From positions 313,460-377,459 of the forward strand of contig NZ_KB895376.1 in NCBI RefSeq assembly GCF_000374825.1: DNA of 64,000 nucleotides. The letters run 5' to 3'. The position numbers and the translations under genes are program-made. This document shows positions 36,039-38,517 of this stretch, piece by piece. The number at the start of each line of letters is the position of its first letter. Within the stretch, counting starts at the first letter, position 1. The DNA is from Paenibacillus sanguinis 2301083 = DSM 16941. GTDB taxonomy: Bacteria > Bacillota > Bacilli > Paenibacillales > Paenibacillaceae. The notes under the pieces were generated by a model. That model made no database searches. It had not been told where the DNA came from and worked only from the letters and a program-made list of their open reading frames with translations.

Positions 36039-36067
36039 TTGCTTTCCCTCCGTTTAGCAACTATAAT
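36039..36067 (+). promoter_or_regulatory. SigA-type promoter of the ABC-F leader
   Basis: TTGCTT (36039-36044) and TATAAT (36062-36067) are separated by 17 bp. It drives a transcript starting near 36074, just before the leader ribosome binding site. Confidence 0.65.
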
Positions 36068-36099
36068 AAAAAGAACTATTTGTGAAGGAGGTGAGGAGT

Positions 36100-36249
36100 G
36101 TGGATCGCAAATTTGCGTGGAATCGATTGAGCCAACTGCCGCTGGCAATGTTTGGCATTGTTAATGTGACAGCTCATTACGGGAGAAGTCTGTCCTTTTT
36201 TACAAATTCGATATCCATAACAAATTGCGAAATGCCGCTCCTACCTTAA
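36100..36249 (+). CDS. Leader ORF (49 codons) upstream of the ABC-F gene
   Basis: A GTG at 36100 is preceded by AAGGAGGTGAGG, an unusually strong ribosome binding site, and opens a 49-codon frame (start VDRKFAWNRLSQLP, end NCEMPLLP) stopping at TAA 36247-36249. A perfect terminator begins 19 nt after the stop. The unit is promoter, leader ORF, terminator, then ABC-F gene. This is the arrangement of ribosome-stalling attenuators that induce ABC-F resistance genes such as vmlR. It could also be an independent small protein gene. A 12-bp palindrome CGCAAATTTGCG (36106-36117) lies early in the frame. Confidence 0.55.
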   Translation: MDRKFAWNRLSQLPLAMFGIVNVTAHYGRSLSFFTNSISITNCEMPLLP

Positions 36250-36268
36250 CTTCACTGTCCGTGAATCC

Positions 36269-36306
36269 AAGAAGGCAGCAGGATTTCCTGCTGCCTTCTT
36301 TATTTT
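36269..36306 (+). terminator. Terminator between leader ORF and ABC-F gene (putative attenuator)
   Basis: AAGAAGGCAGCAGG (36269-36282) pairs perfectly with CCTGCTGCCTTCTT (36287-36300) around a 4-nt loop, followed by TATTTTTA. It stands 106 nt before the ABC-F start. Confidence 0.88.
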
Positions 36307-36411
36307 TATACAAACACCTCAGAGCATTCGCTGCTCCTGATGGCATTTGCTTGTATTTAACTAACGACAGGATCAGGGCTGGACGGCATGGGAATGAAGG
36401 AGAATACACCC

Positions 36412-38517
36412 ATGATGATCCAATGTCAGCATGTTCAGAAATATTATGGCGCCGAGCTGGTGCTTGGTAGCGTTACGTTTGAAATCAAAAGCGGTGAGAC
36501 GGTTGGCCTCATCGGCCGCAACGGCACGGGCAAAACGACCCTGATGAGGCTGCTGGCGGGGAGCGAGCCGCCGGATCAAGGGCAAATTCACATTCGCAGG
36601 AATGTCCGCATCGGAACCTTGGCGCAAATCCCGGATTATCGCCGGGAGGATACGGTCTATGATGTTCTACTTGGAGCCTACGACGATTTGCGCCAAGTGC
36701 AGGCTGAGATGAAGCGGCTGGAAGCTGAAATGTCCAGAATGTCCCTTGCAGCCGGTGAAGACAACGGGATAACGGCTGCACAATCTGGTGGAGCCTTCGG
36801 TTCGGCACCTCTTACACTGGATGAACTTCTACGCCAATACGGCGTGCTGCAAGAAGCCTTCGAGCGTGGTGGCGGATATGAGATGGAAGCCTCCATCCTG
36901 CGCATCGCCTTGGGCCTTGGTATTACGGAAGAGCATTTCGGGCGTGGCTTCGCCTCTTTATCTGGCGGTGAGAAAACAAAGGTTGGCCTTGCGGTCATGC
37001 TGCTGCGGAATCCGGATTTGCTGCTGCTTGACGAGCCCACCAATCACCTCGACATGGCTGCAACGGAATGGCTGGAGGGCTTTGTGCGCAGCTTCCCCGG
37101 CACTACGGTGGTCATCTCGCATGATCGTTTTTTCCTGGATGCGGTAACTGAGAAAATCGTGGAGCTGGAGGATGGAGAAGCCTTCACCTATTTTGGCAAT
37201 TACAGTGCATACAAGGAAGAAAAAGAACAACGACTGCTGCAGCAATTCGCGGATTATCAGGAGCAGCAAAAGAAAATAAAAAAGATGCAGGAATCGATCA
37301 AGCAGTTGATTGAGTGGGGCAATCGTTCCAATCCGCCAAATGCTGGATTTCACCGCCGGGCCGCCTCGATGCAAAAGGCGCTGGATCGAATGACCAAGCT
37401 CAAAAGGCCGATTCTGGAGCGACAGCGCATTGACCTGCAGCTTCAACAAGGAGACCGCTCAGGGAAGGACGCGATTATACTTCGCGAGGTTGGCGCTTGC
37501 CGAGGAGGCCGCTGGCTGTACCGCGAGCTGACCCATACTCTTCGTTATGGCGAAGCAGCCGTGCTAATTGGAGCTAACGGAACAGGGAAGAGCACGCTCT
37601 TAAAAAATATTCTGGGGACCGAGCCACCGCAGGAAGGCCAGGTGCAGCTAGGCTCGCGTGTGGAACCCGGCTACCTGGCCCAGCAGGCTGCACCGGCAGG
37701 TCATGAAGAGACCGTGCTGGAATTCTTCCGGGACCACATCGGTATTGAGACCGGCGAGGCTCGCGGTCAATTGGCCCGTTTTCTATTCTACGGAGCGGAC
37801 GTATTCAAGAAGGTCAGCCGCTTGTCTGGCGGCGAGTGGACTCGGCTGCGCCTGGCTGTATTGATGCATCAGAAGCCAAATCTGCTGATGCTCGACGAGC
37901 CAACGAACCATCTGGATATCGATGCCCGCGAAGCGCTGGAGGAAGCGTTGGAAGAGTACACCGGCACACTGCTGGCGGTGTCCCATGACCGCTACTTTAT
38001 CAACAAAGTAGCGAGTCAGGTCTGGGCGCTGGAGGGTGGGCGCCTCGGCGTCACCCCGGGCGGGTACGATGATTTCCGGGCTGAACTGGCCCGGAAGGAG
38101 GCTGCCCGAGCCGGGGGCGAACCGGCCCGGAAGAGCGGGAGGCCGACTGGCCCCGCAGAACAGGCGGCCTGGGCCGGCGGCGCCAGCGACGCAGGCGCCG
38201 TGCCTGACGGGCGCAGCAAGCCAGCGGCAGCTGCGCCGGGGACGCCTTCGCCTGTGACGCGGGCCACAGGCGGCGAGGCCCAGGGCGGGCGCGCGGGAAG
38301 CGGGGCGCGCCCGCCCGCGAATCCGGCCTCCGTGCGCAAGCTGGAGGCCGACATCGCCGCCGCCGAAGCGGAGCTGGCGGCGGCAGAGGCGGCGATGCAG
38401 GCCCCGGCGGTGGCCTGCGACGCCGTGCGGCTCGCGGAGCTGCTGGAGCTTCGCAATGCCCAGCAGCTTCGCGTCGATGCGCTACTTACACAGTACGTAG
38501 CGCTGCTGGATGACTAG
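36412..38517 (+). CDS. ABC-F family ATPase, putative ribosomal protection protein
   Basis: ABC-F proteins bind the ribosomal E site and either protect against antibiotics or tune translation. I set the start at ATG 36412 with AAGGAG 9 bp upstream (701 residues). Two complete ATPase domains are present: GRNGTGKTT at about 35-43 with LSGGEKTK and LLLLDEPTNHLDMAA, then GANGTGKST with LSGGEWTR and LLMLDEPTNHLDIDA. A charged helical linker of about 70 residues (QEQQKKIKKMQESIKQL) joins them. No transmembrane segment exists. A GC-rich Ala/Gly/Pro-rich stretch of about 90 residues precedes a C-terminal coiled coil (KLEADIAAAEAELAAAEAAM). The leader attenuator points to inducible antibiotic resistance. 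Confidence 0.9.
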   Translation: MMIQCQHVQKYYGAELVLGSVTFEIKSGETVGLIGRNGTGKTTLMRLLAGSEPPDQGQIHIRRNVRIGTLAQIPDYRREDTVYDVLLGAYDDLRQVQAEMKRLEAEMSRMSLAAGEDNGITAAQSGGAFGSAPLTLDELLRQYGVLQEAFERGGGYEMEASILRIALGLGITEEHFGRGFASLSGGEKTKVGLAVMLLRNPDLLLLDEPTNHLDMAATEWLEGFVRSFPGTTVVISHDRFFLDAVTEKIVELEDGEAFTYFGNYSAYKEEKEQRLLQQFADYQEQQKKIKKMQESIKQLIEWGNRSNPPNAGFHRRAASMQKALDRMTKLKRPILERQRIDLQLQQGDRSGKDAIILREVGACRGGRWLYRELTHTLRYGEAAVLIGANGTGKSTLLKNILGTEPPQEGQVQLGSRVEPGYLAQQAAPAGHEETVLEFFRDHIGIETGEARGQLARFLFYGADVFKKVSRLSGGEWTRLRLAVLMHQKPNLLMLDEPTNHLDIDAREALEEALEEYTGTLLAVSHDRYFINKVASQVWALEGGRLGVTPGGYDDFRAELARKEAARAGGEPARKSGRPTGPAEQAAWAGGASDAGAVPDGRSKPAAAAPGTPSPVTRATGGEAQGGRAGSGARPPANPASVRKLEADIAAAEAELAAAEAAMQAPAVACDAVRLAELLELRNAQQLRVDALLTQYVALLDD

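What the first reader, a model, noticed from the sequence alone, without database searches (positions are those of the whole stretch)
36039..36420. Promoter - leader ORF - terminator module in front of an ABC-F gene: a candidate antibiotic-responsive attenuator
Seen directly: TTGCTT-17-TATAAT, an AAGGAGGTG ribosome binding site, a 49-codon GTG-started ORF, a perfect 14-bp terminator with T-tract 19 nt after its stop, and the ABC-F start 106 nt further. Known: several ABC-F resistance genes (for example vmlR in Bacillus) are controlled by drug-stalled ribosomes on a leader ORF that prevent terminator formation. Inferred: this ABC-F is inducible by a ribosome-targeting drug. I did not find a strong antiterminator pairing by eye, only a 5-bp CTGCC/GGCAG match (36137 with the left arm). 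The leader peptide looks unlike any stall peptide I know, so the sensor may be new.
Basis: partly seen in the sequence, partly recalled or inferred. Interest (0 to 1): 0.72.

Follow-up and report, generated by a model that had tools for sequence, protein, structure and literature searches.

The report
Ribosome-parking switch before ABC-F gene
In front of a gene for a ribosome-guarding-type protein, Paenibacillus and many related bacteria carry a conserved RNA leader that is predicted to switch the gene on when a ribosome gets stuck at the start of a short leader gene, as ribosome-blocking antibiotics likely cause.

Summary
The module is widespread: 130 of 131 loci (112 distinct leaders) have the ABC-F directly downstream, as do 17 of 17 hits in six other Bacilli families. 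The ORF is translated (frame-0 stops 0 of 105, other frames 95 and 89), but its end is kept as RNA, read in different frames in different lineages. That strand shows a coevolution signal with two partners: the leader's own SD/start (P1) and a strand just before the ABC-F SD (P6), each 0 of 1000 permutations; P6 repeats in other families, 0 of 2000. Masked folding predicts P6 mainly with a ribosome on codons 1-4. It works like vmlR, but no coevolving antiterminator was found, and drug induction is untested. Extra: the ORF's core, AAYGGGANNNGTNTGYCCNTTTT, recurs in leaders of Erm, Msr, Mef-like, Mph, RlmA-like, Cfr and FexA genes and after one FMN riboswitch, in other frames or outside the ORF: a candidate shared polymerase-pause element.

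The parts
36039..36067 (+). promoter TTGCTT-17-TATAAT
   Evidence: read; TTG and a TATAAT-like hexamer at the same spacing in 29 aligned rows; not reported by the simple scan
36085..36093 (+). Shine-Dalgarno of the leader ORF (overlaps segment 1)
   Evidence: conserved
36088..36100 (+). segment 1: 5' strand of P1, leader SD to start codon
   Evidence: pairs 36088-36092:36243-36247 and 36094-36100:36236-36242; P1 in 108 of 108 single-sequence folds
36100..36249 (+). 49-codon leader ORF, weak match to NCBIfam NF041642 RAxF-45
   Evidence: 20.3 bits, cut-off 27; coding test
36105..36126 (+). 5' strands of P2 (36105-36110) and P3 (36117-36126)
   Evidence: swap test
36178..36201 (+). core element TACGGGAGAAGTCTGTCCTTTTTT (one base off the AAY of the shared motif)
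36208..36230 (+). 3' strands of P3 (36208-36218) and P2 (36225-36230)
36232..36247 (+). segment 2: last codons of the leader; pairs with segment 1 (P1) or with the strand before the ABC-F SD (P6)
36269..36307 (+). intrinsic terminator, 14 bp and U-tract
36381..36389 (+). segment 5: GGACGGCAT, pairs with 36232-36237 and 36239-36241 (P6)
   Evidence: ribosome-masked fold; swap test
36380..36422 (+). P7: predicted hairpin over the ABC-F start (36387-36392:36409-36414, 36380-36383:36419-36422)
   Evidence: accessibility
36397..36402 (+). Shine-Dalgarno of the ABC-F gene
36412..38517 (+). ABC-F gene, ribosomal-protection-like, 701 aa
   Evidence: NF000355 431.4 bits, cut-off 380; homologs

Best explanation
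The stretch is a conserved leader switch in front of an ABC-F gene: the last codons of a 49-codon leader ORF are predicted to pair either with the leader's own ribosome-binding site or, when a ribosome is held at the leader's first codons, with the strand that likely masks the ABC-F start. Shown here by sequence comparison: the module and its link to the ABC-F, translation of the ORF, and a coevolution signal (swap test) of the end-of-ORF strand with both partners. Predicted by folding: without a ribosome the leader closes on itself (P1-P3) and the ABC-F start is covered (P7); with a ribosome on codons 1-4 the end-of-ORF strand is often free and forms P6, which competes with P7. Inferred: drugs that stop ribosomes just after initiation (pleuromutilin, lincosamide, streptogramin A type) would set this state and raise ABC-F synthesis; unhindered ribosomes run over the strand and let it fall back. 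The intrinsic terminator between the two likely limits leak; whether it is also switched is open, since no coevolving antiterminator was found.
For: Context: ABC-F directly downstream in 130 of 131 loci (112 distinct leaders, window included), in 45 of 47 named-genome pattern loci, the other two having only 252 and 216 nt left, and in 17 of 17 loci of six other Bacilli families. Leader-peptide profile in 214 of 295 genomes of the family. Coding: start-to-core length a multiple of 3 in 108 of 108, frame-0 stops 0 of 105 against 95 and 89, pN/pS 0.46 against 0.84 and 1.23. RNA: P1 in 108 of 108 folds against 18% of shuffles of 38 representatives; fold z mean -4.65, below -2 in 36 of 38. Swap test on 38 representatives under 80% identity: P1 -22.0 kcal cognate, -18.2 swapped; P2/P3 -17.6, -11.0; P6 -17.0, -13.3; each 0 of 1000 permutations; three negative window pairs 335, 363 and 95 of 1000. 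Unbiased scan of 351 window pairs has terminator, P3, P1, P2 and P6 windows in its first eight rows. Other families: P6 -17.8 cognate, -13.7 swapped, 0 of 2000. Masked folding: P6 in 31 of 38 with P-site at codon 1, 27 at 2, 21 at 3, 14 at 4, 7 at 5, 1-6 at the later codons tried, 1 without ribosome. ABC-F SD-to-start unpaired 0.39 with P6 off, 0.57 on; higher in 34 of 38, lower in 3.
Against: A tree-based column test on the MAFFT alignment gave only terminator pairs at E 0.00 and 0.45 and one P3 pair at E 1.75. The swap test does not correct for shared descent beyond the 80% cut. In whole-transcript folds mean SD exposure rises only from 0.32 to 0.41, the start codon alone only from 0.41 to 0.51. 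The window's own SD is already open in the P6-off fold (0.97; 0.81 with P6 on); there P7 covers the start codon. In 7 of 38 representatives P6 does not form even with a ribosome at codon 1. No drug, RNA 3'-end or reporter data exist. The ABC-F is under the cut-off of each named resistance family among the 25 of 196 matches shown, so it may not be a resistance factor.
Confidence: 0.66

Rival explanations
1. Classical transcription attenuation: a stalled ribosome frees segment 2, which then pairs with the terminator's 5' arm as an antiterminator.
For: Folding up to the terminator loop with a ribosome at codon 1 pairs segment 2 with the 5' arm in 98 of 108; this is the vmlR model (PMC9226507, section 18 read).
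Against: Cognate pairs are no better than swapped (-9.5 against -10.1; 995 of 1000 permutations as good); cognate arms pair in 30 of 38, swapped in 311 of 456, shuffled in 59% of trials; the terminator stays folded in 38 of 38 masked whole-transcript folds.
Confidence: 0.35
2. The ORF makes a small protein (RAxF-45) with its own function, and the ABC-F beside it is incidental.
For: NCBI keeps a protein family for it; codons 10-20 evolve like coding sequence (24, 15 and 58 differences at positions 1, 2, 3).
Against: The C-terminal part is read in different frames in different lineages while the nucleotides stay; in front of the ABC-F in 130 of 131, 45 of 47 and 17 of 17 loci; core kept as nucleotides, GGG in 105 of 105.
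Confidence: 0.05
3. The leader is a ligand-binding RNA (riboswitch) and the ORF is incidental.
For: Large closed fold with a conserved internal core and an alternative helix at the gene start.
Against: Reading frame and start codon are kept; no Rfam family at gathering score; 25 of the 40 core-bearing loci outside this ABC-F lineage lie before genes of ribosome-drug resistance type.
Confidence: 0.1

Closest known systems
vmlR leader of Bacillus subtilis (PMC9226507; abstract, outline and section 18 read)
   Same: uORF inside an anti-antiterminator fold, intrinsic terminator, hairpin over the main SD, and an alternative pairing that would free that SD; switching by a ribosome at the very start of the uORF
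   Different: vmlR uORF is 3 codons (MIN), here 49 and mostly 44-57 in relatives; here the toggling strand is the last part of the ORF; antiterminator not supported here; no sequence relation tested
cplR, lsaA and vmlR2 leaders (PMC10201436; passages seen)
   Same: ABC-F genes with a uORF; for cplR a terminator and translational attenuation
   Different: uORFs of 3-4 codons; in cplR the terminator stem itself covers the SD
tlrB/yxjB and erm/mef/msr RLR-type leaders (PMC6851288, PMC4335068; passages seen)
   Same: leader ORF, terminator; for tlrB a covered SD and RNAP pausing; the core element found here sits in RLR-type leaders of such genes
   Different: those stall at an R-x-R type peptide motif in short ORFs that end before the core
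NCBIfam NF041642 RAxF-45 (no paper found)
   Same: same ORF family in related genomes, 45 of 296 genomes over cut-off
   Different: named as a protein; evidence here points to a regulatory leader

Membership tests
uORF-controlled ARE-ABCF leader (vmlR/cplR type) | translated uORF with SD upstream of the ABC-F | tested here: met
uORF-controlled ARE-ABCF leader (vmlR/cplR type) | intrinsic terminator between uORF and gene | tested here: met
   window; relatives: hairpin with T-run found in 106 of the 108 leaders scored (not by that rule in L034 and L036; 4 more of 112 were not scored)
uORF-controlled ARE-ABCF leader (vmlR/cplR type) | antiterminator pairing with the terminator arm | tested here: not met
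   995 of 1000 permutations as good
uORF-controlled ARE-ABCF leader (vmlR/cplR type) | alternative pairing that uncovers the main SD | tested here: met
   swap tests; predicted exposure; no experiment
uORF-controlled ARE-ABCF leader (vmlR/cplR type) | uORF of 3-4 codons | tested here: not met
   49 codons here, 40-76
uORF-controlled ARE-ABCF leader (vmlR/cplR type) | induction by a ribosome-targeting drug | not testable with these tools
   needs expression data
ribosomal-protection-like ABC-F (NF000355) | score over curated cut-off | tested here: met
   431.4 of 380 bits
named ARE families (Vga, Lsa, Sal, Msr, OptrA, CplR, CarA) | score over curated cut-off | tested here: not met
   all that are among the 25 matches shown are below cut-off
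RAxF-45 (NF041642) | score over curated cut-off | tested here: not met
   20.3 of 27 bits for the window ORF
NusG-dependent pause site (core element) | TTNTTT in the non-template strand | tested here: inconclusive
   window has TTTTTT after the core; TTNTTT within 0-2 nt of the core in 52 of 90 loci
NusG-dependent pause site (core element) | paused RNA 3' end mapped | not testable with these tools
   needs RNET-seq or in vitro transcription

The most novel reading that the evidence does not exclude
The core of this leader, AAYGGGANNNGTNTGYCCNTTTT, is a portable nucleic-acid control element of Bacilli: one synchroniser, likely an RNA polymerase pause, built into unrelated attenuators for many classes of ribosome-drug resistance (ABC-F, Msr, Erm, RlmA-like, Mef-like, Mph, Cfr, FexA) and at least one riboswitch, whatever the leader peptide. 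In the Paenibacillus ABC-F it sits inside a self-closing leader whose last codons toggle between two ribosome-binding sites.
Probability: 0.5. Interest if true: 0.85.

Novelty: new variant of a known kind. Interest (0 to 1): 0.72.

Why it matters
It turns a family filed as a small protein (RAxF-45) into a likely regulatory leader, gives a testable two-partner RNA switch for a widespread ABC-F of unknown drug range, and shows a sequence element shared by leaders of many ribosome-drug resistance genes. If that element is a pause signal, one sequence would mark inducible resistance genes, including unnamed ones, across Bacilli.

Tried and rejected
Antiterminators: the best partner of the terminator's 5' arm was most often the region of ORF codons 11-14 (42 of 108 in the bins 105-110 nt before segment 2), and segment 2 in only 17 of 108. 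Segment 2 fails the swap test, and among the 45 best window pairs the 5' arm appears only with its 3' arm and, weakly, with the ABC-F SD (z -2.8). Stall at the conserved NG..LS core as a peptide: rejected, because core nucleotides are kept beyond codon need, the core is read in another frame in 4 of 4 Cfr/FexA-type leaders and lies after an R-x-R type ORF in 18 of 19 Erm/Msr/Mef/Mph/RlmA-type leaders. Rfam: nothing at gathering score in the window; lax matches near the terminator look like chance. TaeA as the same protein: recalled; no sequence comparison was made, and a review classes TaeA with Uup (PMC6723617, passage). Plasmids: none of 34 matched records covers 80% of the query. Literature: strings of the core 0 papers, RAxF-45 0 papers; that this leader is not described rests on the searches only, in an open-licence library.

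Weak points of my own tests: representatives were picked at under 80% identity, without a tree. L130 was dropped as the one locus without the ABC-F (by eye it carries an RLR-type leader); L033-L036 were left out of the alignment and folded apart (same closed fold, unrelated sequence). In one search, 3 of 65 loci lacked a start and were dropped, and three rows (L246, L263, L284) have a misplaced main start but stayed in the count. Of the 103 places I fetched 90; the other 13 had been seen before the ABC-F.
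Full report
Observation. The ABC-F start that relatives share is ATG 36412. The protein scores 431.4 bits with NCBIfam NF000355 (ribosomal protection-like ABC-F, cut-off 380) and under the cut-off of each named resistance family among the 25 matches shown. The genome holds six places with the ABC-F linker domain PF12848.

Distribution. DNA of 35927-36700 matches 39 of 59 genomes, own included; the leader part itself matches in 30 by my count of that table. 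The window ORF matches NCBIfam RAxF-45 (NF041642) at 20.3 bits, under its cut-off of 27; that family rings in 101 of 296 genomes of the order, 45 over cut-off, one copy in each but one. Of 131 loci examined, several from the same genomes and the window's own among them, 130 have the ABC-F directly downstream (112 distinct leaders); the exception, L130, is a second weak hit that by eye carries an RLR-type leader. A pattern scan of named genomes gave 47 loci, 45 titled Paenibacillus, one 'Bacillus sp. FJAT-28004' and one Paenibacillaceae MAG, with the ABC-F within 500 nt in 45, the remaining two stretches ending 252 and 216 nt on. A profile of 32 leader peptides rings in 214 of 295 genomes of the family and 42 of 299 of the class. 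The 17 class hits outside the family, in six families and one of them strong (G627), were all fetched; 17 of 17 lie before an ABC-F of 44-60% identity.

The ORF is translated, but its end is RNA. From start to core the length is a multiple of three in 108 of 108 leaders; stops in the frame occur in 0 of 105, in the other frames in 95 and 89; pN/pS is 0.46 against 0.84 and 1.23. After the core, related nucleotides (GCGAAAUGCCGCUCCUACCUUAACC and variants) are read as NCEMPLLP, LRNAAPTLT, IARRRLP or CEKMPALTSFGR in different lineages, so this part is kept as nucleic acid. The core codons vary no more at third positions than at others (18, 19, 15 differences), and GGG is 105 of 105.

Folds. The leader closes on itself: the SD/start strand pairs with the last codons (P1), with P2 and P3 inside. 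P1 is in the minimum-energy fold of 108 of 108 leaders, against 18% of shuffles of 38 representatives, whose fold z-scores average -4.65. In a swap test on these 38, cognate strands pair better than strands exchanged between lineages for the terminator (-22.2 against -16.8), P1 (-22.0, -18.2), P2/P3 (-17.6, -11.0) and for a helix P6 between the end of the ORF and the 45 nt before the ABC-F SD (-17.0, -13.3), each with 0 of 1000 permutations as good; three negative window pairs gave 335, 363 and 95 of 1000. A scan of 351 window pairs without prior choice puts the same helices in its first eight rows. Examples of P6: AUGCCGCUCC with GGAGCGGCAU in L017, GAUGAC-CUCC with GGAG-GUCAUC in L116, AAUGCCCUU with AAGGGUGUU in L132. 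In loci of other Bacilli families the closed fold is in 59 of 62 (39% of shuffles) and P6 again has a signal, -17.8 against -13.7, 0 of 2000. A column test with a tree-based null on the MAFFT alignment gave only terminator pairs at E 0.00 and 0.45 and one P3 pair at E 1.75, a result against the strength of the helix evidence on that alignment.

The switch. With a ribosome masked on the transcript (-13 to +16 round the P-site), P6 appears in 31 of 38 representatives at codon 1, 27 at codon 2, 21 at 3, 14 at 4, 7 at 5, and 1-6 at the later codons tried; without a ribosome in 1 of 38, where P1/P2 form in 38 of 38. The strand used by P6 lies in, or next to, a predicted hairpin over the ABC-F start; in the window it is CAUGGG:CCCAUG on the start codon. 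The stretch from SD to start codon is unpaired 0.39 with P6 off, 0.57 with P6 on and 0.45 with shuffled upstream sequence; on exceeds off in 34 of 38 and falls below it in 3. The effect is smaller in whole-transcript ensembles (SD 0.32 to 0.41), and the window's own SD is open either way.

The terminator. Pairing of segment 2 with the terminator arm forms in silico with a ribosome at codon 1 (98 of 108), but shuffled arms do so in 59% of trials and cognate arms are no better than swapped ones. I therefore do not claim that the terminator is switched.

Comparison. The vmlR paper (abstract and section 18 read) describes an anti-antiterminator around a 3-codon uORF, a terminator and an SD-covering hairpin that an alternative pairing would undo. 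The layout is the same here, with a much longer uORF and with the toggling strand inside that uORF. The short uORFs of cplR, vmlR, vmlR2 and lsaA are said to be likely stalled by drugs that act after initiation with little context need (PMC10201436, passages), which fits a sensor at codons 1-4, whose amino acids vary between lineages.

The core element. AAYGGGANNNGTNTGYCCNTTTT matches 91 of 398 Bacilli genomes exactly at 103 places by my count, with no match of the reversed pattern in the table; in a phylum sample 4 of 299 genomes match, two of them outside Bacilli, by eye before a Mef-like and an Msr-like gene. The window copy differs at its first base (TAC for AAC), so the window genome itself is not among the 91. 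Of the 103 places 63 lie before this ABC-F lineage: 50 of the 90 loci fetched and the 13 others, seen earlier. The remaining 40 lie before RlmA/G748-type methyltransferases (6), Msr (5), Erm (4), Mef-like (3), FexA or FexA-like (3), other ABC-F (2), Cfr (1), Mph (1), ribD with an FMN riboswitch (1), and 14 unclassified. Over their NCBIfam cut-offs were Cfr, FexA (L299), Msr (L274, L293, L319), Erm (L295, L310, L323), the two other ABC-F (NF000355) and RibD; the Mef-like, Mph, RlmA-like, two FexA-like and one cut-short Msr proteins scanned were below, and further members were placed by blastp only. The core is in frame 0 of a leader ORF in 45 of 50 ABC-F loci, in frame 2 in 4 of 4 Cfr/FexA-type loci, and after an R-x-R type ORF in 18 of 19 Erm/Msr/Mef/Mph/RlmA-type loci. 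In 19 RLR-type leaders the core can pair with the stall codons, and the wobble base covaries: G:C 8, T:A 5, A:T 2, mismatched 4. So it is a nucleic-acid element. The elemental pause signal is G at -10, Y at -1, G at +1, and NusG pauses are known in the tlrB, vmlR and ribD leaders of B. subtilis (PMC12288461, passages); the core fits that signal (GG, eight bases, TG) and ends in a T-run, TTNTTT in 52 of 90. That it is a pause site is inference.

Noticed in passing
L240-L332: The leader core motif recurs before many ribosome-drug resistance genes in Bacilli, in different frames or outside the leader ORF.
   Followed up: yes
L258:1340-1632: The core motif follows directly after an FMN riboswitch (Rfam RF00050) and before ribD, so it is not limited to ribosome-sensing leaders.
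   Followed up: partly
L033-L036: A distant group of RAxF-45 leaders has the same closed fold with unrelated sequence and, by eye, two terminators in a row before the ABC-F.
   Followed up: partly
L009 and L051 (same genome): The ABC-F reading frame looks broken near its start although the leader is intact; described only.
   Followed up: no
L303-L305: The core motif precedes an ORF that looks like an acetyltransferase by eye and has no NCBIfam match at the limit used (for L303 and L304); it may be an unnamed resistance gene.
   Followed up: no
window:35928-35986: A stretch of about 59 bases recurs at 83-92% identity in eight other places of the genome and in two relatives; a dispersed repeat beside the divergent amino-acid ABC transporter gene.
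   Followed up: no
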